Below are positions 4,398-59,800 of a stretch of 64,000 nucleotides of DNA, in pieces. The DNA comes from Actinospineispora spinosispora DSM 44797 (GTDB taxonomy: Bacteria; Actinomycetota; Actinomycetes; Mycobacteriales; Pseudonocardiaceae). Every line of letters starts with the position of its first letter. Position 1 is the stretch's first letter. The notes beneath the pieces were generated by a model. It was not told where the DNA came from and searched no databases. It saw only the letters and a program-made list of their open reading frames with translations. Where the stretch lies: the NCBI RefSeq assembly GCF_000429025.1, contig NZ_KE386836.1, forward strand, positions 1 through 64,000, given 5' to 3'. The position numbers and the translations under genes were made by a program.

Positions 4398-5678
4398 ATG
4401 CTGTACGTCCTGGGAATCGTGCTGTTCGCACTGGGCATCGCGTTCGCCATCGCCTGGCATGAGCTCGGCCATTATTCGACGGCGAAGTACTTCGGCATCC
4501 GGGTGCCCGAGTTCATGGTCGGCTGGGGCCGGACGCTGTTCTCCCGGCAGATCGGTGAGACCGAGTTCGGGTTCAAGGTCATCCCGGTCGGCGGCTACAT
4601 CCGCATGGTCGGCATGCTCCCGCCGCGCGCCGGTGAGACGCACGGGCGCAGCCGCAAGAGCGGCCCGTTCCAAGGGCTCGTGGAGAGTGTCCGCGCCGAG
4701 TCCGACCTGCTGTGGCGCCCCGGCGACGAAACCCGCGAGTTCTGGACCCGGTCGCCGTGGAAGCGGATCGTCGTGATGGCCGCCGGTCCGGTGATGAACC
4801 TGATCCTGGCCGTGGTCCTGATCGCGATCGCGCTGATGGCGATCGGCACCCCCGGCACGATGACCGTCGGCTACGTCGCCAAGTGCACACTGCGCGCCGA
4901 CCAGGCCGCGATGACCGAGTGCCCGGCCGACGCGCCGCCGACGCCCGCGGCGGCAGCCGGGCTGAAACCCGGCGACACGATCGTGAGCCTGGCCGGCGTC
5001 CGCTACGACGACTGGGAGACGTTCCGCCGCGCCGTCCGGACGGTCACCGGCACGGTGCCGCTGGTCGTGATGCGTGACGGCCACGAGCAGACCCTCACGA
5101 TCACACCGGTGCAGAACACCGTCGGCAAGCTGGACGGCACCGTCGGGTACGAGCAGGCCGCGTTCCTCGGCTACAGCCCGGTCATGGACTACCAGACCCG
5201 AGGGCCCGGCTTCGTGGCGCAGCAGCTCGGCCAGTACGTCACGGTCACCGGAAGTGCGCTCGCCGCGCTGCCCAGCCGGGTGCCGGAGCTGTTCCGGCAG
5301 GCTTTCCTCGGCGAGAAACGCGAGATCGACACCCCGATGAGTGTCGTCGGGGTGTCCCGGATCGGCGGTGAGGTGCTCGGACAGGACAGCCCGATCAAGT
5401 CGAAGCTGGCGTTCCTGCTGAACCTGCTGGCCGGGGTCAACCTGTCCATGTTCCTGATCAACCTGCTGCCGCTGCCGCCGTTCGACGGCGGGCAGATCAT
5501 GGCCGCCGCGTGGGAGTCGGTCCGTCGGCGCATCGCGACGCTGCGCGGTCGGGCTGACCCGGGACCGGTGGACATCGCCAAGATGATGCCGGTCGCCTAT
5601 GCCGTCGGCCTGCTGTTCATCTGCTACAGCCTGCTCGTCGTCGCCGCCGACGTCTTCAACCCGCTCAGACTCTCGTGA
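4398..5678 (+). CDS. Rip1/RseP-type site-2 protease (M50 family)
   Basis: A 426-residue intramembrane zinc metalloprotease. The zinc motif HELGH is at residues 21-25 in the first membrane helix. A second-shell motif PLPPFDGG sits near residue 365 in a later helix. Between them lie a PDZ-like segment (about 165-250) and an extra hydrophilic insert (about 80-120) not found in short Rip1 proteins. The family cleaves single-pass anti-sigma factors and divisome proteins within the membrane. In many actinobacteria the main Rip1 gene lies between dxr and ispG; here the neighbours are two acetyltransferases, so this may be a paralogue. The stop codon lies inside the terminator palindrome. Confidence 0.88.
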   Translation: MLYVLGIVLFALGIAFAIAWHELGHYSTAKYFGIRVPEFMVGWGRTLFSRQIGETEFGFKVIPVGGYIRMVGMLPPRAGETHGRSRKSGPFQGLVESVRAESDLLWRPGDETREFWTRSPWKRIVVMAAGPVMNLILAVVLIAIALMAIGTPGTMTVGYVAKCTLRADQAAMTECPADAPPTPAAAAGLKPGDTIVSLAGVRYDDWETFRRAVRTVTGTVPLVVMRDGHEQTLTITPVQNTVGKLDGTVGYEQAAFLGYSPVMDYQTRGPGFVAQQLGQYVTVTGSALAALPSRVPELFRQAFLGEKREIDTPMSVVGVSRIGGEVLGQDSPIKSKLAFLLNLLAGVNLSMFLINLLPLPPFDGGQIMAAAWESVRRRIATLRGRADPGPVDIAKMMPVAYAVGLLFICYSLLVVAADVFNPLRLS

Positions 5679-5717
5679 GTGTTGAGTATGGCCATGGCCA
5701 TACTCAACACTCACGAG
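5672..5717. terminator. 46-bp perfect palindrome, GTGAGTG family
   Basis: A perfect 23+23 bp palindrome. It begins CTCGTGAGTGTTGAG, its centre is GGCCATGGCC, and it ends CTCAACACTCACGAG. It overlaps the stop codon of the M50 protease gene and ends 4 bp before the stop of the convergent aldo/keto reductase gene, so it can act as a bidirectional terminator. It is the simplest member of a dispersed family also present near 25.7, 32.3, 41.9 and 47.9 kb. Confidence 0.8.
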
Positions 5718-5721
5718 GTCG

Positions 5722-6708
5722 TCAGGCGCTCTCGCCCTTGACCCAGTTCATGTCGGGGTACCGGTCGCCGGCCGGGGTCAGCTTCGACAGGGTGCGCAGC
5801 TGGTCGGGGCTCAGGGTCAGTGCGGCCGAGCGGAGGTTCTCGCTCAGGTAGCCGCGCCGCTTCGTGCCGGGGATCGGCACCACGTCGAGGCCCTGGCCGA
5901 GCAGCCAGGCCAGCGCGACCTGGCCCGGCGTCGCCTCCAGCTGGTCGGCGATCACCCGCACCCGGCGGACCAGCTCGAGGTTGGCCTCCAGGTTCTCCGC
6001 CTGCCAGCGCGGAAGGGTCCGGCGGAAGTCGTTGTCGGCCAGGTCGTGGGTGGCGGCGACGGAACCGGTGAGCAGGCCCCGGCCGAGCGGGCTGTAGGGC
6101 ACGATGCCGATCCCCAGCTCGCGGGCGGTCGGCAGGACGTCGGCCTCGATGTCCCTGCTGAAGATCGACCATTCGCTCTGCACCGCCGTGATCGGATGCA
6201 CCGCCTGGGCCCGACGCAGCGTGTCGGCAGACGCCTCGGACAGACCGAGGTGGCGGACCTTGCCCTGCTCGACCATGCGCGCCATCGCGCCGACGGTCTC
6301 CTCGATCGGCACCGAGGGGTCGACGCGGTGCAGGTAGTACAGGTCGATCGTGTCCACGCCGAGCCTGCGCAGCGACGCGTCGACGGCCCGCGCCGCGTAC
6401 TCGGGTGATCCGTCGAGCCCGGTGACCTCGTTGCCCGGACCGGCCACGATGCCGAACTTGGTGGCGACCACGACCTCGTCGCGCCGGGTGCGCAGGACCT
6501 GGGCCAGCAGCTCCTCGTTGCGCCCGACGCCGTACATGTCGGCGGTGTCCAACAGCGTGACACCGTCGTCGATCGCCTGGTTCAGGGTGGCGAGCGACTC
6601 GTCCTGGTCGCCGGGGCCGTAGCCGAAGCTCATCCCCATGCAGCCGAGGCCGAGCGCGGACACCTCCAGATGGCGCAGTTTCCGGGTGGCGAGGGTGTTT
6701 TTGAGCAT
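5722..6708 (-). CDS. Aldo/keto reductase
   Basis: A 328-residue TIM-barrel oxidoreductase of the YajO/auxin-induced-protein-like AKR group. The catalytic tetrad is readable: Asp and Tyr in DTADMYGVG, Lys in VVATKFG and His in YYLHRVD. The C-terminal [11 protein letters not shown] region is the NADP(H)-binding part. The start at 6708 is supported by AAGGACGG upstream. It lies 55 bp downstream of the MerR gene in the same direction and may be part of its regulon. Likely reduces small aldehydes or ketones. Confidence 0.9.
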
Positions 6709-7302: not shown

Positions 7303-8502
7303 ATGCGCCGGAACTGGGTCGTGCTGCTGATCGCCCTGGGAGTGGACAATCTCGGCTCGGGGCTGTTCCTGCCGTTGACCATGGTCTACGTGACGCGGGT
7401 CGTCGGGCTGCCGCTCGGCGTGGCCGGTGCGGCGGTGACGGCCGGTACGGTCGCGGGCCTGCTGGTTCCGGCACTGGTCGGTCCGCTGGTGGACCGGGTC
7501 GGGCCCCGGCCGGTCGTGGTCGTGTCGCAGGTGCTGCAGGCGGTGGCCGCGCTGGTCTATCTGACGGCGTCCGGCGTGGCGTCGGTGGTGGTCGGCGCGC
7601 TGCTGCTGGCGATGGGGCAGCAGATGTTCTACAGCGCCCTGTTCGCGCTCATCGCCGATGTGGCGGGGACCGGACCGAAGGATCGGGCTTTCGCCGTCGT
7701 GGGCATGGTGCGCTCGGCGGCCTTCGGGTTCGGTGCGCTCGCCGCCGGGGTGCTGCTCGCCGGTGGGGACACGGTGCTGCGCTGGGCGATCGGTGTGGAC
7801 GGGCTGACGTTCGTGGTGGCGGCGGGGCTCGCGGTGCTGCTGCGGGTGTCTCACCAACGTCCCGCCAGGGACGAACCGAACGGTGTCGGGGTGCTGCGCA
7901 ACCGCCCCTACCTGTTGCTGATCGGCACCACGATGCTGTTCTCGCTGGCCGTGGACTTCTTCCTGATCGGCGTGCCGGTGTTCGTGCTGGACGTCCTGCA
8001 CGGCCCGAACTGGCTGCCCGGGGTGCTGTTGGCGCTGTTGACCGCGATGAGCGCCCTGTTCGGCACGGCGATGCTGCGCCTGACCCGACGGTGGTCGCGC
8101 CTCGGTGCGATGTCTCTCGGCGCGGTTCTGTTCGCCACGTGGTGTCTGATCTCGGTGGCGGCCCGGTGGCTGCCGTCCGCTGTCCAGCCCGGTTATCTGG
8201 TGGGGGCCGTGGTGGTCTTCGGGACAGGGAACCTGATCTTCGGTCCTCGGGCGAACGCGCTGGCCGAGGCCGCCGCTCCGGTCGCGTCCCGAGGACGGCA
8301 CCTCGCGGCGTTCCAGTACGCGTTCACACTGGCCGGGGTGCTGGCGCCGGCGGTGGTCGGCTTGTTCTCGGTGTCCTACTGGCTGCCCTGGCTGGTGGTG
8401 GCACTCGCCTGCCTGACAGCCAGCGTCCTGCTGCGCCCCCTGGCAACGAAACTGCCCGCAAGCGCCGTCGCGGTTGACCAGCCACCTTTCCGAGTGCGGT
8501 AG
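7303..8502 (+). CDS. MFS transporter (drug efflux type)
   Basis: A 399-residue membrane protein with about 12 predicted transmembrane helices in two halves. The first intracellular loop carries the MFS motif-A-like GPLVDRVGPRPVVV. Its length and pattern fit 12-TM proton-coupled exporters. It is transcribed divergently from a MerR regulator with paired dyads between them, the usual arrangement for inducible efflux. The cargo is not predictable. The stop codon is followed after 4 bp by the 211-bp structured repeat. Confidence 0.85.
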   Translation: MRRNWVVLLIALGVDNLGSGLFLPLTMVYVTRVVGLPLGVAGAAVTAGTVAGLLVPALVGPLVDRVGPRPVVVVSQVLQAVAALVYLTASGVASVVVGALLLAMGQQMFYSALFALIADVAGTGPKDRAFAVVGMVRSAAFGFGALAAGVLLAGGDTVLRWAIGVDGLTFVVAAGLAVLLRVSHQRPARDEPNGVGVLRNRPYLLLIGTTMLFSLAVDFFLIGVPVFVLDVLHGPNWLPGVLLALLTAMSALFGTAMLRLTRRWSRLGAMSLGAVLFATWCLISVAARWLPSAVQPGYLVGAVVVFGTGNLIFGPRANALAEAAAPVASRGRHLAAFQYAFTLAGVLAPAVVGLFSVSYWLPWLVVALACLTASVLLRPLATKLPASAVAVDQPPFRVR

Positions 8503-8506
8503 AAGT

Positions 8507-8717
8507 CGGCTCCGCAAGTCTCCGAAGGAGTTCCGGCGAAGGCCGGCGTACTGAATGTCCGCAACCAGGCTCCCAAGCCGGACGGCGGCTCTCACGGTGA
8601 CAACAAGCGCGCGCTCAACCGAGGAACGAGGTTTGTTTTTCTGGGAGTACCCCAGCGAGCGCTTGCGCGAGCCGGGGTGGTCACAGAAAAACTCCGCGCG
8701 GAACAGGCCCAAGAAGA
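8507..8717 (+). repeat. Structured dispersed element, copy 1
   Basis: About 211 bp that recur, clearly related, at 40294-40499 in the same orientation. Hairpins are visible: CTCC-GAA-GGAG at 8520-8530, CCGGC-GAAG-GCCGG at 8533-8546, and a long stem pairing GTTTTTCTG (8635-8643) with CAGAAAAAC (8684-8692). The long stem encloses ACCCC/GGGGT (8649-8653, 8674-8678). It ends 29 nt before the start codon of the next gene. It is either a 5'-leader RNA element or a hairpin-rich mobile repeat. Confidence 0.75.
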
Positions 8718-8746
8718 CTGTCGGTGCCCGCGGGTAGGAACGGGGC

Positions 8747-9130
8747 ATGACAACCGATCTGTTCAGCACGCTGGAGATCACCGACCAGGACGTCGCGCGG
8801 CAGCCGGAAGATCTGCCGGGGCTGTTCGTGCGGCTGGCCAACGCGGGGGACGTCGACGGCCTCGTCGGGCTGTACGAGGGCGACGCGGTGCTCACCACCC
8901 CGGAGGGTGTCGAGATTCGGGGCGCCGCCTCGATCGGCCGGTACTTCAGCGAGTTGCTGGCGTCGGCCCCGGTGTTCACTCTCGGTGAGCAGCGTCCTGT
9001 GCTGCGGCTGCGCGATGTCGCGCTCACCTCGACCCGGCTCGGCCCGGACCAGGCGACCGCCGAGGTCGCTCGCCGGCAGCTCGACGGCACCTGGCGGTGG
9101 GTGTCGGACCGGCCGGACACCCGGCGGTGA
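8747..9130 (+). CDS. NTF2-like / SgcJ-type small protein
   Basis: A 127-residue protein fitting the SnoaL/DUF4440 cone-shaped fold: an N-terminal helix, the segment DGLVGLYEGDAVLTTPEG that typifies YybH/SgcJ relatives, and C-terminal strands. Such proteins are ligand-binding or isomerase-like with very diverse roles; no catalytic residues can be assigned. It stands alone, directly downstream of copy 1 of the structured element, which may form its 5' leader. Confidence 0.7.
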   Translation: MTTDLFSTLEITDQDVARQPEDLPGLFVRLANAGDVDGLVGLYEGDAVLTTPEGVEIRGAASIGRYFSELLASAPVFTLGEQRPVLRLRDVALTSTRLGPDQATAEVARRQLDGTWRWVSDRPDTRR

Positions 9131-17795: not shown

Positions 17796-17842
17796 CACCA
17801 GCCGCGAAGGCCCGGGCCCGCGCGGGCGCGGCCGGCGCACCG

Positions 17843-17904
17843 TGCACACCTTCGTGCTGCGTCGCACACGTCCGGACATGTGCGACGCAACAAGAGGATG
17901 TGCA
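17843..17904. terminator. 62-bp palindromic terminator, TGCGTCGCACA family
   Basis: The core pairs TGCGTCGCACA (17858-17868) with its complement (17879-17889) around CGTCCGGACA. Outer TGCACA/TGTGCA ends (17843-17848, 17899-17904) close a larger stem. The same core and ends occur at 50955-51016. It lies between the convergent CsaA and aldehyde dehydrogenase genes. Confidence 0.8.
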
Positions 17905-17922
17905 AAGAACACCCCGAGGCCC

Positions 17923-19407: not shown

Positions 19408-19474
19408 GCCAGCCACCGTAACGCCGCACCCCCACATCCCGCCGTCCCTGACGCTCACTCCCGGCCCCGTCCGA

Positions 19475-19523
19475 CACGAATGTGGCTTTAGGGACGTTCA
19501 ACGTCCCTAAAGCCACATTCGTG
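19475..19523. terminator. 49-bp perfect inverted repeat
   Basis: Two perfect 24-bp arms around one central base. The left arm begins CACGAATGTGGCTTTAGGG; the inner ends are ACGTT and AACGT. It lies between two leftward genes, 45 bp upstream of the aldo/keto reductase stop site side and 67 bp before the aldehyde dehydrogenase start. It probably terminates readthrough between the two units. Sequence unrelated to the GTGAGTG and TGCGTCGCACA families. Confidence 0.75.
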
Positions 19524-19567
19524 CCAGTGGGAGAGTGCGGTAGGGGCGGGTCGGGGGTGGGGTGGGG

Positions 19568-23165: not shown

Positions 23166-25658
23166 GTGGTCGGGATCGTCGTCGTCTCCCACAGCAGAGC
23201 ACTGGCCGATGCCGCGGTGGCGTTGGCCGGTGAGATGCTGCACGGCCAGTCGGTGCCCCTCGAGGTCGCCGCTGGTCTGGACGACACCACGTTCGGCACC
23301 GACGCCGCCGCGATCGCCGAGGCGGTCACGGCAGCGGACACCGCATCGGCCGGTGCCGGCGTCGTCGTGTTGATGGACATGGGCAGCGCGGTGCTGTCCG
23401 CCGAGCTCGCGCTGGAGCTGGTCGAGCCGGACGTCCGGGAACGAGCGGTGCTGTGCCCGGCGCCGCTGGTGGAGGGGCTGGTCGTCGCCTCGGTCAGCGC
23501 CGCGGGCGGTGCCACGCGGGCCGAGGTCGCCGCCGAAGCGGTCAGCGGGCTCGCCGGCAAGATCGCGCAGCTCGGCGCGGAGCAGGCCCAGGCGCCCTCC
23601 GAGGACGAGACGCCGGAGTTCCCCGCGACCGGGTCGTTCACCGTGGCGAACCCGCACGGCCTGCACGCCCGGCCGGCCTCGCGGTTGGCGAGCCAGCTGC
23701 GCGGTGTCGACGCGGAGGTCCAGCTGCGCAACGGGACGACCGGATCGCGCTGGGTGTCGGCGGTGAGCCTGTCGAAGCTGGCAACGCTCGGTGTCCTGTG
23801 CGGCCACGAGCTGCAGGTCAGGGCCAGGGGCCGGCAGGCAGACGCGGCGATCGAGCAGCTGGTCGAGCTGGCCGGACGCAACTTCGACGAGACCCCCGGC
23901 CAGGACGCGATCGGCGGACGCGGGGTGGCCGACTATCCGACCAACGAGCAGTCGGTGTGCGCGGTCGGCGCGCGGCGGCCGATCGGTGCCTCGCCCGGTC
24001 TCGGGATCGGCCCGGCGTGGCTGCCCTCGGCGCACCGGGCGCCGATCGCCGTGCCCGACCAGCCGGCCGAAACGCCGGAGGTCGAATGGCAGCGCGTCGA
24101 GCAGGCCCTCGAAGCGACGCGCGGGGAGATCGAACAGGTGCGGGAACGCACCGCGCGGGAGATCGGCAAGAGCGACGCGGCGATCTTCGACGCGCACCTC
24201 GCGCTGCTGGAGGACCCCGAGCTGGTGCAGGGCGCCCGTCGGCGCATCGACAGCGGCCAGGCCGCGCCGGGCGCCTGGTCGGCCGCCGTCGTCGAGGTGC
24301 ACGACGAGCTGGCCGCGCTCGCCGATCCCTACCTGCGGGCGAGGGCGGCGGACGTCGACGCGGTCGGTGAACAGGTGCTTCGTGCGCTGCTCGGCGAAGA
24401 GGCCACACCGGTGCCGACGATCGATCGGGACGGCGTGCTGGTCGCGGCCGACCTGACCCCGGCCGAGGCGGCCGGGCTGGACCGCAACCGGGTGGCCGCC
24501 GTGGTGCTCGCCTACGGCAGCCCCACCGCGCACAGTGCGATCCTGCTGCGCGCGCTCGGCATCCCCGCGGTCGTCGCCGCCGGGGCCAAGGTCCTCGACA
24601 TCGAGGAGGGCACGCCGCTCGCGGTGGACGGCGCGCGCGGCGAGCTGATCGTCAACCCGGATCCGAAGACCCGCGACGGGTTCCTGGACCGTGCCGCCGC
24701 ACTGGCGAAGCGGGAACGGCAGGCGCGGGTGCGGGCCACCTCGGCAGCCCTGACCAGCGACGGCGTCGAGATTCCGGTCGGCGCCAACATCGGGTCGGTT
24801 CGGGACGCGCGGCTGGCCAGCACGGACGGCGCCGACTTCGCCGGGCTGGTCCGTACCGAGTTCCTGTTCCTCGACCGGGAGCAGGCGCCCGACTCGGAAG
24901 AGCAGGAGGCCACGTACCGGGAGATCGCGGCGGCGCTGAACGGCAGGCGGATCACCCTGCGCACGCTCGACGTCGGTGGCGACAAGCCACTCGGGTACCT
25001 GCCGATGCCCGCCGAGGCCAACCCGTTCCTCGGGCTGCGCGGCCTGCGGTTGTCGCTGGCCCGGCCGGAGCTGCTCACCGAGCAGCTGCTCGCCATCGTC
25101 CGGGTGGCGCACGACGCACCGATCGACCTGATGTTCCCGATGGTCAGCACCCTCGACGAGCTGTTCGGCGCGCGCCGGCTGCTCGACGACGCGATCAAGC
25201 AGGTCGGCCGGGGCGAACCCGCTGAGCTGCGGGTCGGCATCATGGTCGAGGTCCCGGCCACCGCGCTGAAGGCCGCCGCGTTCGTGCCGCACGTCGACTT
25301 CTTCAGCATCGGCACGAACGACCTCACCCAGTACACGCTGGCGTCCGAACGGGGCAACGACGCCGTCGCCGCCCTCGGCGACCCGCTCGACCCCGGTGTG
25401 CTGAAGCTCATCGACCAGGTGTGCCGGGCGTCCGGCCCGGGCACCCCGGTCTCGGTGTGCGGCGAGCTCGCCGCCGACGAGCAGGCCACCGCGCTGCTGC
25501 TGGGTCTCGGGGTGGACAAGCTCTCGGTGACCCCGAGGGCCGTCCCCTCGGTCAAGCAGGCGGTGCGCGGCGTGAACCGCTCCGAGGCCCGCACCCTGGC
25601 GACGTCGGCCCTGGCTGCCACCAGCGCCGACGAGGTCCGCGCCCTCCTCCCCCCGTGA
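23166..25658 (+). CDS. dhaM: DhaM-HPr-enzyme I fusion (multiphosphoryl transfer protein)
   Basis: About 830 residues with three PTS modules in order. The first is an EIIA-Man-like DhaM domain (1-125; active His9 in VVVSHS). Next is an HPr domain (about 155-242; His167 in NPHGLHARPAS). Last is a complete enzyme I (about 268-830), with its phospho-His near residue 456 in GSPTAHSAILLRALG and the PEP-binding MVEVPATAL, GTNDLTQYTLA and SVCGELAAD motifs. The chain can carry phosphate from PEP to the ADP on DhaL in one polypeptide. GTG at 23166 gives the conserved MVGIVVVSHS start; the TTG at 23154 is an alternative but sits directly on its AAAGG. Confidence 0.94.
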   Translation: MVGIVVVSHSRALADAAVALAGEMLHGQSVPLEVAAGLDDTTFGTDAAAIAEAVTAADTASAGAGVVVLMDMGSAVLSAELALELVEPDVRERAVLCPAPLVEGLVVASVSAAGGATRAEVAAEAVSGLAGKIAQLGAEQAQAPSEDETPEFPATGSFTVANPHGLHARPASRLASQLRGVDAEVQLRNGTTGSRWVSAVSLSKLATLGVLCGHELQVRARGRQADAAIEQLVELAGRNFDETPGQDAIGGRGVADYPTNEQSVCAVGARRPIGASPGLGIGPAWLPSAHRAPIAVPDQPAETPEVEWQRVEQALEATRGEIEQVRERTAREIGKSDAAIFDAHLALLEDPELVQGARRRIDSGQAAPGAWSAAVVEVHDELAALADPYLRARAADVDAVGEQVLRALLGEEATPVPTIDRDGVLVAADLTPAEAAGLDRNRVAAVVLAYGSPTAHSAILLRALGIPAVVAAGAKVLDIEEGTPLAVDGARGELIVNPDPKTRDGFLDRAAALAKRERQARVRATSAALTSDGVEIPVGANIGSVRDARLASTDGADFAGLVRTEFLFLDREQAPDSEEQEATYREIAAALNGRRITLRTLDVGGDKPLGYLPMPAEANPFLGLRGLRLSLARPELLTEQLLAIVRVAHDAPIDLMFPMVSTLDELFGARRLLDDAIKQVGRGEPAELRVGIMVEVPATALKAAAFVPHVDFFSIGTNDLTQYTLASERGNDAVAALGDPLDPGVLKLIDQVCRASGPGTPVSVCGELAADEQATALLLGLGVDKLSVTPRAVPSVKQAVRGVNRSEARTLATSALAATSADEVRALLPP

Positions 25659-25772
25659 GTGGCAAGTGGTCCTACCCCGAAGGGGCGCCGAAGGCGTAGC
25701 AACCCTGGGCACTCACGACGAAAAGCGTGTCGTGAGTGCCCAGGGTTGCTATAGGACCACTTGCCACTCACG
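25654..25772. terminator. Composite palindrome A1 (GTGAGTG family, long form)
   Basis: Outer arms 25654-25674 and 25752-25772 pair perfectly over 21 bp. Inner arms 25698-25719 and 25729-25750 pair perfectly over 22 bp. A side hairpin CCCC-GAA-GGGG sits at 25675-25685. Outer and inner arms each carry the GTGAGTG/CACTCAC tag. The left arm overlaps the dhaM stop codon. Acts as a terminator and is one of three homologous 120-bp composites. Confidence 0.75.
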
Positions 25773-25839
25773 AAAGCCGGGTACGAGCGGATCAGCACGT
25801 CAGGGCTGCACGCAGCTCGGAGTGCACAGTCCCGGGGTC

Positions 25840-25960
25840 CTCGTGAGTGCTGAGGCCGCCTATAGCCGGTCTACGCACTCACGACGGAAGAGCTGTCGTG
25901 AGTGCGTAGACCGGCTACGCTTCGCGCCCCTTCGGGGTAGACGGCCTCATCACTCACGAG
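25840..25960. terminator. Composite palindrome A2 (GTGAGTG family, long form)
   Basis: Outer arms 25840-25857 and 25943-25960 pair with one mismatch. Inner arms 25863-25885 and 25895-25917 pair perfectly. A side hairpin CCCC-TTC-GGGG lies at 25927-25937, on the opposite side from A1. Its right arm overlaps the 3' end of the epimerase gene. Together with A1 it occupies the whole 295-bp gap between dhaM and the convergent epimerase gene, which holds no other feature. Confidence 0.75.
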
Positions 25961-26784
25961 GGAGGGAGCCAGGGCAGGGCGGTTCGGGCTCGGGCGCCGG
26001 TTACCTGCTGGTCCAGGTGGAATGCCTCCGCTATCGGGCCCATGAGGGCTACCGCCTCCGGCAGCGACAGGTGGGTGAGGGTCTCGGGCAGGCCGGCCTC
26101 GCGGGCCGCCGCGGTCAGCACCTCGGCCTGGGTCGGGTAGCCCTCGGCCACCCCGGCGTAGACGGAGCCGGCGGGTGCGTGCAGCGCGAGCACGTACAGC
26201 TCGGCGATGTCGTCGACGTGCACCGTGGACCAGTGGTTGCCGCCGTCACCCACACACGGCACCGCGCCCCCGCCGCGTGCCGCCGACAGGTAGAACGTCT
26301 CGAGCAGGCCTCCCGACTTGCCGTAGACCAGGCCGGGCATGACCAGGACCGGGCGGCCGGGGCGCTCCAGCACCAGCTTCTCGTTCGCCGCCCGCCAGGC
26401 CACCAGCGCGGGCGGCGCCTGCGGAGCGTCCTCGTCGACCACGCCGTCGGTGTCGCCGTACACCCAGGTGCCGCCGGTGTGCACGTACGCGCCCCGGTCG
26501 CCGAGCCCGGCCTGCATCGCCTCGGACGCGGTCCGGTCGATGTCCGCGCCGTCGGCCTCGGCGGCCTGACCGAGGTGGATCACCCCGTCCGAGGCGCGCG
26601 CGGCCCCGGTGAGGACCTCGGCGTCGGTGAGCGTGCCGAGGACCGGCGTCGCGCCCAGCCCGGCGACGATCTCGGCGGACCGGTCCGTGCGGACCAGTGC
26701 GCTCGCCGCGATGCCGTGGCGGCGCAGCGCCGCGAGTGTGGCGCGTCCGATGTAGCCGGAGCCGCCGGTCACGAATACCTGCAT
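25954..26784 (-). CDS. NAD(P)-dependent epimerase/dehydratase (extended SDR-like)
   Basis: 276 residues. The Rossmann signature VTGGSGYIGRATL is at residues 4-16, and the substrate domain is short, as in atypical extended SDRs that act as NAD(P)-sensing or reductase proteins. The start at 26784 (MQVFVTGGSGYIG) is supported by GAAAGG upstream. It follows the LysR gene by 72 bp on the same strand. Its 3' end runs into composite palindrome A2. Substrate unknown. Confidence 0.85.
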   Translation of the reverse strand: MQVFVTGGSGYIGRATLAALRRHGIAASALVRTDRSAEIVAGLGATPVLGTLTDAEVLTGAARASDGVIHLGQAAEADGADIDRTASEAMQAGLGDRGAYVHTGGTWVYGDTDGVVDEDAPQAPPALVAWRAANEKLVLERPGRPVLVMPGLVYGKSGGLLETFYLSAARGGGAVPCVGDGGNHWSTVHVDDIAELYVLALHAPAGSVYAGVAEGYPTQAEVLTAAAREAGLPETLTHLSLPEAVALMGPIAEAFHLDQQVTGARARTALPWLPPS

Positions 26785-31546: not shown

Positions 31547-32302
31547 TTGACTTATCCGGACTCAGTCTTCAACCTACCGCCGAGCGAGGCTCCGGTTCAG
31601 CGACCGAAGCCGATCGTCGGCATCGTGCTGCTGGCACTGGCGGTCGTCGGTGCCGGTGGGTTGTTCGTCGCGCCGGTGCGGCTCATCGCGATGGGGTTCC
31701 TGATCGTGCTGACCGCGGTGGTCGCGCTGGTCTGGTTCCGGGTCCGCGAGCGCACGACGATGGTCCTGACCGTCGTCACCCTCGGTGTGCTGGGTGTCGG
31801 CCTGGGTATCGGCATCGCGGTCCTGCTCGCCGGGCGTTTCGGGGCGGACGAGGCGACTGCGCCGCCGCCCGGTGTGGAGTCGACATCCACGCAGGGTGAC
31901 GGCGGGTTCGTCGGACCGGCCGCCCCGTCGGGTGTCGAGCCGCCGCCTGCCCCGTTGCCGCCGGCCACCAGCAACGCCAAGCCGAAGCCGAGCGTCAAGC
32001 CCACTGCCACCCCGAAGCCCACCACGACCGCGAAGCCCGACGCCGCGAAGCCGGACGCGGCCAAGGACAAGGACGAGAAGGACAGGGCGTCCAGCGAGGC
32101 CGAGCCGAAGAAGGAACGCCCGAAGTGTTCGTTCGGCGACGTCAAACCCAACCCGGACGGTTCCGCCGAGCTGTGCGGCTCGAACGGCAACTGGGAACAC
32201 GCCGAGCAGGACAGCAAGGGCGACTGGCACCGCGCCGACCCCGACTCACCCAGCTCCCGGAACAACTACGGCGAGTACGGCTACTTCGGCGACGACAACT
32301 GA
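31547..32302 (+). CDS. Membrane protein with Lys/Pro-rich linker, function unknown
   Basis: 251 residues. Three predicted membrane helices occupy about residues 23-43, 46-66 and 72-95. An exposed Pro-, Thr-, Lys- and Ala-rich linker follows (about 100-175, repeated KP units such as PKPTTTAKPDAAKPDAA). A small C-terminal domain (about 180-251) has two cysteines (CSFGDVKPNPDGSAELCG) and ends in an acidic, aromatic tail. The linker would hold the C-terminal domain away from the membrane, probably outside. TTG start supported by AGAGGG. Not recognised. Confidence 0.65.
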   Translation: MTYPDSVFNLPPSEAPVQRPKPIVGIVLLALAVVGAGGLFVAPVRLIAMGFLIVLTAVVALVWFRVRERTTMVLTVVTLGVLGVGLGIGIAVLLAGRFGADEATAPPPGVESTSTQGDGGFVGPAAPSGVEPPPAPLPPATSNAKPKPSVKPTATPKPTTTAKPDAAKPDAAKDKDEKDRASSEAEPKKERPKCSFGDVKPNPDGSAELCGSNGNWEHAEQDSKGDWHRADPDSPSSRNNYGEYGYFGDDN

Positions 32303-32304
32303 CC

Positions 32305-32348
32305 TCGTGAGTGTTGAGTGTGGCTATAGCCGCACTCAACACTCACGA
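32305..32348. terminator. 44-bp palindrome, GTGAGTG family
   Basis: Arms of about 20 bp (left arm TCGTGAGTGTTGAGTGTGGC) around a TATA centre, with one wobble mismatch. The left half starts 3 bp after the stop of the membrane protein gene; the right half covers the stop of the convergent 2-hydroxyacid dehydrogenase gene. Nearly the same sequence as the element at 5672-5717. Confidence 0.8.
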
Positions 32349-33383
32349 AGGGCTGAGGGCCTCCGGGTTGGCGCAGTGCAGGGGTGGTTCGCCGCGTAGG
32401 AAGCGGGCCACGTCGGCCGCCAGGATCGTGGCCGCCTTCGCCGCGGTCTGTTTGCTCGCACCGGCCAGGTGCGGGGTCATCACGATGTTCGGCGTGGTCA
32501 GCAGACGGGAGCCGGCCGGGATGGGCTCTTCGGGGAACACGTCGAAGCCGGCGCCGAACAGGTGCCCGGAGTCCAGTGCGTCGCACACCGCGTCGTAGTC
32601 GACCAGTGCTCCGCGCGCGCAGTTGACCAGCACCGCGCCCGGCGGCATCGCGGCGATCTGTTCCCGGCCGATCATGCCCTTGGTCTCCTCGCTGACCCGC
32701 GCGTGCAGTGACACGACGGCGGACCGGCGCAGCAGGTCGTCCAGCTCGACCTGCTCGGCGATCCCGTCCAACGCCCCCGGTTTCAGATACGGGTCGTGGA
32801 CCAGCACCTTCGCGCCGAACCCGGCGACCATCCGCGCGACGCGGCTGCCGATCGCGCCGTAGCCGATCAGGCCGACGTAGGAGTTCTCCAGCTCCGGGCC
32901 GACCTCCTGGTACTGGTACAGGTCGCCGCGCCACACCCCGCCGCGCAGCTCGGCGTGGGTCGCCGGGATGCGGCGCATCGCGGAGAGCATCACCGCCATG
33001 GTGTGCTCCGCGGTGGCGACGGCATTGCGCCCGGGTGCGAACGTCACCGCGACACCGTGCCGGGTCGCGGCCTCGATGTTGGCGTTGACCGGGCCGCCCC
33101 GGCTGATGCCGAACAGCTTCAGCGACGGTGACGCCTGCAGGACCTTCTCGGTGAGCCCGGCCAGCTGCGTCACACAGATCTGGGCACCGTCGAGCGCGGC
33201 GATCAGCTCGTCCTCGGTGCCGGACGCCTCGTCGACCTCGCCGACCCGGCCGAACGGCTCGATCGGCCACGGCAACGTCAGCTCGGCGAACTCGACCTCC
33301 TGATCGACCTCGGCCCGAATCGCTTCGACGAACAGGCGGCTCAGCACGAAATGGTCACCGGCGGCGAGGATGCGGATGGTCAT
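32343..33383 (-). CDS. D-2-hydroxyacid dehydrogenase
   Basis: 346 residues of the D-isomer-specific 2-hydroxyacid dehydrogenase family. The NAD Rossmann motif is GLIGYGAIGSRVAR; the catalytic Arg lies in NCARGALVD and the His in MTPHLAGAS, with the Glu between. The ATG at 33383 overlaps the end of the histidine phosphatase gene by 4 bp. As last gene of the carbohydrate operon it may oxidise or reduce a sugar acid or its phosphate; the exact substrate is not readable. Confidence 0.88.
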   Translation of the reverse strand: MTIRILAAGDHFVLSRLFVEAIRAEVDQEVEFAELTLPWPIEPFGRVGEVDEASGTEDELIAALDGAQICVTQLAGLTEKVLQASPSLKLFGISRGGPVNANIEAATRHGVAVTFAPGRNAVATAEHTMAVMLSAMRRIPATHAELRGGVWRGDLYQYQEVGPELENSYVGLIGYGAIGSRVARMVAGFGAKVLVHDPYLKPGALDGIAEQVELDDLLRRSAVVSLHARVSEETKGMIGREQIAAMPPGAVLVNCARGALVDYDAVCDALDSGHLFGAGFDVFPEEPIPAGSRLLTTPNIVMTPHLAGASKQTAAKAATILAADVARFLRGEPPLHCANPEALSPS

Positions 33384-40201: not shown

Positions 40202-40293
40202 TTCCTGGTTGCGGGTGGTCCCCAAGGTGAACGGACCGCTAAGTTGGCTCCGCAACAGCTAGCCCAGCAACAGCTAGCCAGCAACAGCCAATC
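40202..40293. repeat. Short tandem CAACAGCTAGCC repeats
   Basis: Between the DeoR gene and the structured element, the unit CAACAGCTAGCC occurs twice and then once more in decayed form (about 40254-40292), with a 14-15 bp period. It looks like local slippage. No gene or promoter is obvious in the rest of the stretch. Confidence 0.5.
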
Positions 40294-40499
40294 CGGCTCC
40301 GCGAGTCTCCGAAGGAGTTCCGGCGAAGGCCGGGCAGTGCATGTCCGCAACAACCGCGCCAACGCAAGGAGGCGGCTCCCAGAGTGACGACAAGCGCGCG
40401 CCCAGCGACGAAGGAGCTTGTTTTTCTGGGAGCACCCCAGCGAGCGCCAGCGAGCCGGGGTGGTCACAGAAGAACTCCGCGCGGAACAGGCCGGAAGAG
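40294..40499 (+). repeat. Structured dispersed element, copy 2
   Basis: About 206 bp matching 8507-8717. It keeps CTCC-GAA-GGAG (40307-40317), CCGGC-GAAG-GCCGG (40320-40333), and the long stem GTTTTTCTG (40420-40428) with CAGAAGAAC (40467-40475). In that stem an A-to-G change relative to copy 1 leaves a G-T wobble pair. The apical loop differs in length and sequence. It ends 18 nt before the ATG of the PucR gene. Confidence 0.75.
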
Positions 40500-41750: not shown

Positions 41751-41813
41751 GACTCAGCCCTGTGCCCGGCTTTGCCCGTGCCCGGCTCCAAGGCATCTCG
41801 GCTTCGCCGTCGA

Positions 41814-41957
41814 CTCGTGAGTGGCAAGGGCGCCTATAGGCGCCCGGAGCACTCACGACGGTAAAGCTGTCGTGAGTGCTCCGAGCGCCTACGCTTCGCG
41901 CCGCTCCGCGGTAGACGCCCTTGCCACTCACGAGGGGTAGACGTCCTTGCCACTCAC
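41814..41957. terminator. Composite palindrome A3 with partial duplicate arm
   Basis: Outer arms 41814-41832 and 41916-41934 pair perfectly over 19 bp (CTCGTGAGTGGCAAGGGCG). Inner arms 41838-41859 and 41869-41890 pair with one mismatch. The side hairpin module lies near 41890-41913. A second, partial copy of the right arm follows at once (41935-41957) and runs into the stop of the FAD oxidoreductase gene. It lies between convergent genes. Confidence 0.75.
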
Positions 41958-50919: not shown

Positions 50920-51148
50920 GCGCCCACGCCCGCGCACATGCCGCTGGAACACCCTGCACACCTACATGCTGCGTCGCACACGTCCGGACATGTGCGACGC
51001 AGCACGTAGATGTGCAAAGTCGCCCTGGGGCGCACGCGCCAAGGCACTGGATGGCCAGCGGGGACACGCCCCGCAACCGCACCCCCCGAGACGCGTCAGC
51101 GGGGATAGGCCCGCAACCCCAGCGCGCTACGAGCCGACGGGACCACAG
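50920..51148. other. Convergent intergenic region
   Basis: A 229-bp gap between the DUF1772 gene and the leftward NTF2-like operon. It contains the 62-bp palindromic terminator (separate entry); the remaining 130 bp show no supported gene. Confidence 0.4.
50955..51016. terminator. 62-bp palindromic terminator, TGCGTCGCACA family
   Basis: Second copy of the element at 17843-17904: the same TGCACA/TGTGCA ends and an identical 32-bp core (50970-51001). Differences are confined to the segments between ends and core. These changes keep pairing here (CTACATGC with GCACGTAG), so this copy is the better-paired one. Lies between convergent genes. Confidence 0.8.
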
Positions 51149-58930: not shown

Positions 58931-58935
58931 CCCCG

Positions 58936-58995
58936 CGAGTCGGTCGTCTCAGCACACCGAGTCGGGGCTTTCAGCACCCGCGAGCCGGGTGGCCT
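58936..58995. repeat. 22-bp repeats at the 3' end of the CbiX-ferredoxin gene
   Basis: CGAGTC occurs at 58936-58941 and 58958-58963, exactly 22 bp apart; a third, slightly altered unit (CGAGCC at 58981-58986) follows. On the minus strand the units read GACTCGCGGGG, GACTCGGTGTGCTGA and GGCTCGCGGGTGCTGAAAG. The last units encode the end of the gene and its stop codon. Confidence 0.8.
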
Positions 58996-59617: not shown

Positions 59618-59654
59618 CCACAGTCCTCCAGTGCACGGGCGGACCGAAATCCGC

Positions 59655-59800
59655 GACTCGCCCTGCCAAATCTCCCGACTCGCCCTGCTGAAAACCCCGA
59701 CTCGCGGTGCTGAAAACCCCGACTCGCGGTGCTGGGGTGCCCGACTCGCGGGGGAGGGGTGACCCTCGACCGCGAGTCGGGCACGTTGGCACACCGAGTC
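59655..59800. repeat. 22-bp tandem GACTCG array, with inverted units
   Basis: GACTCG begins at 59655, 59677, 59699, 59721 and 59743: five units with an exact 22-bp period, the typical unit being GACTCGCGGTGCTGAAAA plus CCCC. Two units in the opposite orientation follow (CGAGTC at 59773 and 59795, again 22 bp apart), so tandem and inverted repeats are combined. The units abut each other with no spacers, so this is not CRISPR. It fills the gap between the CbiX-ferredoxin and pyc genes. Confidence 0.85.

What the first reader, a model, noticed from the sequence alone, without database searches (positions are those of the whole stretch)
8507..8717. Dispersed ~210-bp hairpin-rich element, copy 1: possible leader RNA
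It is related to 40294-40499 over its whole length and in the same orientation. In both places it ends 18-30 nt before a start codon of a plus-strand gene. Short GAA/GAAG-capped hairpins are kept, and a long stem (GTTTTTCTG with CAGAAAAAC) encloses an ACCCC/GGGGT stem. Conserved fold, orientation and distance to unrelated genes fit a cis-acting RNA; they also fit a mobile hairpin element that inserted upstream of genes.
Basis: partly seen in the sequence, partly recalled or inferred. Interest (0 to 1): 0.75.

Follow-up and report, generated by a model that had tools for sequence, protein, structure and literature searches.

The report
Dispersed hairpin repeat, not leader RNA
The 205-base hairpin sequence is one of roughly a hundred copies of a non-coding, apparently mobile repeat scattered between genes of this one bacterial genome, facing either way relative to the genes, so it looks like a selfish DNA element rather than a gene's regulatory leader.

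Summary
In detail: window 8505-8709 and 40292-40492 are homologous over their whole length. But there are not two copies. A 27-base core has 104 sites in this genome (57 +, 47 -; reversed-pattern control 0). A sister type B has 32 long matches; in at least 21 places B lies back to back with an A copy. Beyond three single 2-mismatch hits the core is missing from 61 other genomes of the genus. The leader reading fails: the gene beyond the 3' end points the same way in 39 of 85 A copies, the opposite way in 46 (p 0.52). Copies favour convergent gaps and avoid divergent ones. Hairpin arms covary strongly, yet G-T and A-C mismatches are equally rare and triloops on this strand are mostly GNA; both fit folded DNA better than RNA. 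Twelve of 12 relatives read lack the element at one orthologous site. Y1 transposase, reverse transcriptase and TnpB-type domains were searched and not found; the mobiliser is unknown. Best reading: a lineage-specific, modular, REP/MITE/BOX-like repeat family of unusual size and complexity.

The parts
8505..8709 (+). type A element, copy 1
8520..8530 (+). hairpin S1, CTCC-GAA-GGAG
   Evidence: sequence; 99.5% mean column identity over S1+S2 in 88 copies
8533..8546 (+). hairpin S2, CCGGC-GAAG-GCCGG
   Evidence: sequence
8607..8701 (+). 3' domain closed by a GCGCGC/GCGCGC stem, holding hairpin 3 and the long stem (limits approximate)
   Evidence: DNA fold
8617..8633 (+). variable hairpin 3 (AACC ... 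GGTT here); replaced as a block in other copies
8635..8692 (+). long covarying stem S5, GTTTTTCTG/CAGAAAAAC
   Evidence: covariation
8649..8678 (+). inner hairpin 4, ACCCC ... GGGGT, with an exchangeable tip
8700..8709 (+). sharp 3' end GGAACAGGCC
   Evidence: logo over 87 A and 25 B copies
8710..8721 (+). degenerate A-rich tail after the GGCC end, shared loosely by A copies
40292..40492 (+). type A element, copy 2
40239..40291 (+). short imperfect tandem repeats (about 15 nt) directly 5' of copy 2 (limits by eye)
   Evidence: sequence; a 15-nt period in 9 of 64 copies classed as solo

Best explanation
This is one copy of a non-coding, lineage-specific interspersed DNA repeat that was copied into the space between genes many times and in both orientations. 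It works as a non-autonomous mobile element: it carries no gene, has fixed ends (an outward 3' end GGAACAGGCC that also closes sister type B) and a nearly invariant two-hairpin core, and probably moves by an enzyme acting in trans on the folded single strand. The hairpin arms turn over as blocks that stay self-complementary, most likely by replication template switching plus recombination between copies. Where it lands at a gene's 3' end it often supplies the stop codon and a stable hairpin, so it is tolerated, and perhaps used, as a gene-end hairpin rather than as a leader. Shown: the copies, both orientations, the shared 3' end, composites, covariation, gene-end preference, absence at one orthologous site in the relatives read. 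Inferred: mobility in trans, the single-strand intermediate, template switching, any effect on gene expression.
For: 104 core sites (57 +, 47 -), reversed-pattern control 0; 136 sites with a looser core (68/68). Copies up to 99.5% identical at different places; for 7 of the 8 most similar pairs no flank similarity was found. Orientation to the downstream gene 39 same, 46 opposite. Element-bearing gaps: 35 convergent, 48 tandem, 14 divergent, against 18/55/24 expected from element-free gaps of at least 100 nt (chi-square p 3e-5). Of 60 opposite-facing genes at the 3' side of A or B copies, 18 have their stop codon at position -1 or 0 of the GGCC end. Absent between cca and an MFS gene in 12 of 12 relatives read, where this genome has it. 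21 divergent B-A pairs, in 14 of which both outward ends were recognised. Covariation beyond shuffles and slid controls. Equal G-T and A-C: 4 and 4 of 640 S5 cells, 6 and 5 of 568 cells of the aligned stem. 12 distinct GNA triloops against 4 TNC among 17 distinct triloops, no GNRA or TTCG tetraloops on stems of 5 bp or more.
Against: No mobilising enzyme was found: Y1_Tnp, RVT_1 and Cas12f1-like_TNB have 0 matches; IS110-type proteins are present (5 matches) but no A or B end was seen in the loci held around them; other transposase families were not searched. No target-site duplication: longest shared word of the two flanks of 19 composites is 4.3 against 4.28 permuted, though in some of these one end was not recognised, so the flank starts off register. 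The 5' side is not uniform: solo, composite, or chimeric with other repeats. The commonest single hairpin, S2, has a GAAG tetraloop (84 occurrences), not a triloop. Movement itself was not seen. The wobble counts are small and have no RNA control.
Confidence: 0.65

Rival explanations
1. Cis-acting leader RNA (riboswitch or attenuator) of the downstream gene.
For: In the window both copies precede a + strand gene at 25-37 nt; stems covary.
Against: 39 same against 46 opposite over 85 copies; unrelated neighbours; no Rfam match for the window at gathering score or for 8440-8760 at E<=5; 35 of 97 element gaps are convergent, with no gene start on either side.
Confidence: 0.03
2. Standalone trans-acting structured RNA of an RNA-guided mobile system (IscB/TnpB omega RNA, IS110 bridge RNA), with the variable 5' flank as guide.
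For: Size about 200 nt, many hairpins, many dispersed copies, variable sequence next to the conserved 5' end.
Against: TnpB-type domain not found; RRXRR not found but its controls were silent too, so inconclusive; IS110 proteins present without A or B ends in the loci held; no Rfam match (that HEARO is in Rfam is recalled); no G-U excess.
Confidence: 0.08
3. Classical MITE of a DDE insertion sequence: B-A composites are the element with terminal inverted repeats, solo A a one-ended derivative.
For: Composite ends read GGCCTGTT..CGCGCG inward on both sides where recognised (14 of 21); no coding capacity seen; high copy number.
Against: No target-site duplication; most A copies (97 in the loci held) have no recognised B partner (21 pairs), although 8 more lie in repeated blocks over 550 bp; no transposase with these ends was noticed in the loci held; the inverted match is short, the rest of A and B differs.
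Confidence: 0.2
4. Host-selected bidirectional gene-end hairpins (terminator or mRNA-end protector) spread by recombination.
For: Convergent excess and divergent deficit; stop codons at the element edge; other palindromes sit at gene ends in this window and in the same gap of several relatives (by eye).
Against: A stable hairpin alone does not need a 30-column core at 99.5% identity; no T-tract terminator was found inside copy 1; density differs over tenfold between contigs.
Confidence: 0.15

Closest known systems
REP/BIME palindromic repeats (GTAG and CGTC super-families)
   Same: Intergenic, high copy, mainly in convergent and unidirectional gaps; CGTC REPs also lack a dedicated transposase (PMC3733652, passages). 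Single and back-to-back forms (BIME) are recalled.
   Different: About 205-250 nt with several hairpins instead of 20-40 bp; no GTAG/CGTC tag recognised by eye; no Y1 transposase found in this genome.
Pneumococcal BOX (and RUP, SPRITE) repeats
   Same: Composite repeats with a tandemly variable module, over-represented between convergent genes; BOX has only weak similarity to the ends of an insertion sequence (PMC3049150, passages).
   Different: No sequence relation tested; here whole hairpins are exchanged and type B pairs back to back.
Prokaryotic MITEs, including one with a minisatellite in Porphyromonas gingivalis (PMC4596501)
   Same: Short, non-coding, inverted ends in the composite, tandem repeats attached (listing and abstract start only).
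   Different: No target-site duplication seen, no parent insertion sequence found.
Standalone HEARO / IscB omega RNA copies
   Same: Dispersed structured elements of similar size (recalled).
   Different: No Rfam match, no partner nuclease shown (inconclusive), no wobble asymmetry.

Membership tests
Leader RNA / riboswitch | fixed orientation upstream of the regulated gene | tested here: not met
   39 same, 46 opposite of 85
Leader RNA / riboswitch | transcribed with the gene | not testable with these tools
   no expression data
REP (RAYT-associated) | Y1 (HUH) RAYT transposase in the genome | tested here: not met
   PF01797: 0 matches; controls rang in 5 of 14
REP (RAYT-associated) | 20-40 bp palindrome with GTAG or CGTC tag | tested here: not met
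   element is about 205 nt with several hairpins; definition from PMC3733652 (abstract start, passages); the tag was looked for by eye only
REP (RAYT-associated) | intergenic, both orientations, convergent and unidirectional gaps | tested here: met
MITE | terminal inverted repeats | tested here: inconclusive
   met by 14 of 21 composites with both ends recognised, not by solo A
MITE | target-site duplication | tested here: not met
   19 composites
MITE | parent insertion sequence with the same ends | tested here: inconclusive
   none noticed; only part of the genome was read
IscB omega RNA / HEARO | match to the HEARO covariance model | tested here: not met
   no Rfam match at gathering score or at E<=5
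IscB omega RNA / HEARO | IscB nuclease in the genome | tested here: inconclusive
   PF14239 0 matches, but no control genome rang
TnpB omega RNA | TnpB in the genome | tested here: not met
   PF07282 0 matches; controls rang in 6 of 14
Retron / group II intron / DGR | reverse transcriptase in the genome | tested here: not met
   PF00078 0 matches; controls rang in 3 of 14
BOX | boxA-boxB-boxC sequences | not tested
   no BOX sequences were compared

The most novel reading that the evidence does not exclude
A new class of mobile DNA defined by a multi-hairpin single-stranded fold: GNA-capped hairpins in one strand are recognised by an unknown, non-Y1 enzyme, fixed 3' ends pair back to back in composites, and the hairpin arms evolve as interchangeable modules renewed by template switching, so that structure is kept while sequence is exchanged. 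The family would be a bacterial parallel of rolling-circle, minisatellite-bearing non-autonomous elements of eukaryotes (that parallel is recalled).
Probability: 0.2. Interest if true: 0.65.

Novelty: new variant of a known kind. Interest (0 to 1): 0.42.

Why it matters
It shows how a dispersed, covarying, hairpin-rich repeat can pass for a riboswitch when the only two copies in view happen to face the same way, and gives two cheap discriminators: orientation over all copies, and G-T against A-C intermediates. If the mobiliser is indeed not a Y1 transposase, the family offers a tractable case of palindromic repeats that spread by an unidentified enzyme, an open question also raised for CGTC REPs (PMC3733652, passages).

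Tried and rejected
Leader RNA: rejected on orientation. Coding sequence inside A: rejected by inspection, since the exchanged hairpins change length by numbers not divisible by three. Rfam at gathering score and at E<=5: nothing. Phage and plasmid collections, blastn: nothing. Exact 20-letter core pattern in genome contigs: 2 MAG loci, taken as chance and not studied; in viral contigs: 0 (the tool warns that the own record may be left out). Shared cargo or neighbour family: none. Y1, RT, TnpB-type: none. RRXRR: uninformative. IS110: present, unlinked within the 1.6-3.2 kb loci held. Target-site duplication: none. T-tract terminator in copy 1: none; the single hit lies in the upstream gene. A scan of the 3' end with one mismatch gave 200 sites but its control gave 103, so only the 100 exact sites listed were used. 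Thirteen of those that I could not assign to a fetched A or B copy were fetched with filler stretches, and their 3'-end contexts read: six A copies or A fragments with altered cores (L242, L244, L245, L247, L249, L252; L249 had already been found), one B-like (L243), three with A's 3' part behind other sequence (L241, L251, L253), one with only the end behind other repeats (L250), one small remnant with a B-like end opposite (L248), and one inside a gene that looks like chance (L246). No autonomous copy was seen among them.

Rows dropped: of 104 core sites 100 were listed; 4 partial cores beside another listed site were left out, so 96 places were used to choose regions; 95 of them lie in regions fetched and the C62 place. 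The 88-copy alignment leaves out incomplete, N-bearing and odd-length copies and the two window copies that duplicate fetched loci. The covariation alignment used 37 distinct stems of 80 parsed, plus one window row whose register I set two bases off. Two of 82 A copies and four of 20 B copies did not parse for the wobble counts. One locus (L089) was counted twice in the orientation and stop-codon counts; the mended counts are. Copies called solo are those without a recognised B in the same locus; 8 of them lie in repeated blocks over 550 bp and may be composites with a degenerate B. Gene counts use my own gene caller, not an annotation. Relatives' regions L233-L240 were fetched but not analysed; the ordering by relatedness of the relatives is unknown.

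Full report
WHAT IS THERE. The two window copies align over their full length. The conserved element is 8505-8709 and 40292-40492: a 5' lead (GYCGGCTCCGCRAG), two small hairpins S1 (CTCC-GAA-GGAG) and S2 (CCGGC-GAAG-GCCGG), the word GTGAATGTC (CTGAATGTC in copy 1), a variable stretch, GGCGGCT, a GCGCGC stem that encloses hairpin 3 and a long stem S5 with hairpin 4 at its tip, and the end CGCGCGGAACAGGCC. In 88 copies the S1+S2 core has 99.5% mean column identity; the two variable parts and hairpins 3 and 4 have 69-81%.

COPY NUMBER AND SPREAD. blastn gave 40 long matches at 84-100% identity in the same genome, with 40 of 171 candidates scored. A 27-base core has 104 sites with up to 3 mismatches (57 +, 47 -; reversed control 0); 100 were listed, 84 of them exact. 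A looser core that also catches type B has 136 sites, 68 on each strand; in the other 61 genomes of the genus there are three single hits, each with 2 mismatches. blastn at E<=0.001, with at most 13 candidates scored per genome, found the element in none of 59 other genomes, 35 of them congeneric. blastn against phages and plasmids gave nothing; exact scans gave two unrelated-looking MAG loci and no viral contig. Density is uneven: 2 of the 96 places used lie on the 1.19-Mb contig C1 (12 expected), 13 on C6 (3.8 expected); unexplained.

TYPE B AND COMPOSITES. A second type of about 247 nt has the same kind of core (CCGAAGGGGTTCCGCCGAAGGCGGG) and the same end but other hairpins; 32 matches cover at least 215 of 263 query bases. 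In 21 pairs B lies divergently 5' of an A copy, with both outward ends recognised in 14; the spacer is 108-189 nt and in 17 of 21 holds a long GTGAGTG...CACTCA palindrome. Eight more A copies without a recognised B lie in repeated blocks over 550 bp, so 21 is a lower bound. Other arrangements share the end: another composite in L187, and chimeras in L241, L250, L251 and L253.

NOT A LEADER. With my own codon-based gene caller, the gene beyond the 3' end points the same way in 39 of 85 A copies and the other way in 46 (p 0.52). Gaps holding an A or B element are 35 convergent, 48 tandem, 14 divergent; element-free gaps of at least 100 nt in the same loci predict 18, 55 and 24 (p 3e-5; other gap cut-offs p 0.0017 to 7e-5). 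Of 60 opposite-facing genes on the 3' side of A or B copies, 18 have the stop codon at positions -1 or 0 of the GGCC end, and 40 within 30 nt or inside the element. The 193 neighbour proteins form no cluster larger than 3. In the window the neighbours are an MFS transporter and a SnoaL-like protein (just under the curated cut-off), and a DeoR-type and a PucR-type regulator.

INSERTION. Between cca (CCA-adding enzyme by its domains) and a convergent MFS gene this genome has the element; 12 of 12 relatives read there do not (their genomes also have no core site). Several of those have other, unrelated palindromic repeats in the same gap (by eye). Copies up to 99.5% identical occur at different places; 7 of the 8 most similar pairs show no flank similarity, the top pair shows some. 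I found no target-site duplication in 19 composites. Directly 5' of copies classed as solo there is often a ~15-nt tandem repeat of locus-specific sequence: 11 of 64 reach 75% self-match (9 at period 15), against 0 of 23 copies in loci with a pair and 1 of 86 stretches beyond the 3' end.

DNA OR RNA. In S5, 6 of 15 pairs show changes on both sides, 15 such cells against 1.8 in shuffles; slid controls reach 3 at most. Hairpins 3 and 4 come in exchangeable sequence blocks, several of which occur in different combinations while others are found in one combination only. Mismatch intermediates are symmetric: 4 G-T and 4 A-C in 640 outer S5 cells, S1 and S2 add 1 and 2; on the aligned whole stem 6 and 5 of 568 cells (overlapping data); B adds 1 and 0 in 112 cells. 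A functional RNA would be expected to show G-U excess on its own strand (general knowledge; no RNA control was run). On stems of 5 bp or more, triloops on this strand are mostly GNA (12 of 17 distinct; complement type TNC 4), with no GNRA or TTCG tetraloops, but the commonest hairpin, S2, has a GAAG tetraloop. That d(GCGAAGC)-type mini-hairpins are exceptionally stable as DNA is recalled. Several loops are flanked by GA/GA mismatches (by eye, listing). I take this as moderate evidence that folded DNA is what counts. Perfect double changes without intermediates are also what template switching at quasi-palindromes would leave; that mechanism is described in papers seen only as search listings with abstract starts.

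WHO MOVES IT. Y1_Tnp, RVT_1 and Cas12f1-like_TNB: 0 matches in this genome, with ringing controls. RRXRR: 0 matches with silent controls, so open. IS110 Transposase_20: 5 matches, four of them at contig ends, with no A or B ends in the 1.6-3.2 kb held around them.

COMPARISON. In biology it is nearest to REP/BIME and BOX repeats. REPs lie mainly in unidirectional and convergent gaps, and CGTC REPs have no dedicated transposase (PMC3733652, passages); BOX repeats are composite and over-represented between convergent genes (PMC3049150, passages). A systematic survey of 40 bacterial genomes lists 92 stem-loop repeat families (PMC2267715, abstract and passages). My literature searches listed no paper that seemed to describe this family; I saw titles and abstract starts only, and the organism's name is not known to me. 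It fails defining tests for REP and for MITE as stated in the membership table, so I file it as a variant of the known kind of small interspersed palindromic repeats, not as a member of a named family.

Noticed in passing
window 5664-5722, 25643-25968, 32299-32357, 41775-41938: Perfect or near-perfect GTGAGTG...CACTCAC palindromes at or near gene ends; blastn matches in up to 14-15 fetched loci per block (sequences). The same palindrome class lies in the middle of 17 of 21 B-A composites.
   Followed up: partly
window 58931-58989 and 59644-59761: CGACTCGCGG-type short repeats, tandem at 59644-59761, resembling sequence in the cca-MFS gap of a relative (L221, by eye).
   Followed up: no
window 17826-17907 and 50951-51036: A dispersed hairpin repeat (TGCGTCGCACA..TGTGCGACGCA), matches in up to 8 fetched loci.
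   Followed up: no
window 19455-19539: Palindrome TGTGGCTTTAGGGACGTTCAACGTCCCTAAAGCCACA, matches in up to 12 fetched loci.
   Followed up: no
L076:3763-4216: Head-to-tail partial copies of the A 5' core with a 75-bp period, followed by a full A copy.
   Followed up: no
L087, 3' flank of its A copy: Tandem repeat of a ~20-nt unit (AGAACAAGCCAGTACAGGCG)n that follows the element's end (locus L058).
   Followed up: no
L085, L087, L097, L127, L133: An A subtype in which S5 is replaced by an unrelated long stem AAAATCCTAAAG...CTTTAGGATTTT.
   Followed up: partly
contigs C1 and C8 against C6 and C16 of this genome: Copy density differs more than tenfold between contigs: 1.7 and 2.9 per Mb against 34.6 and 47.9 per Mb.
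   Followed up: no
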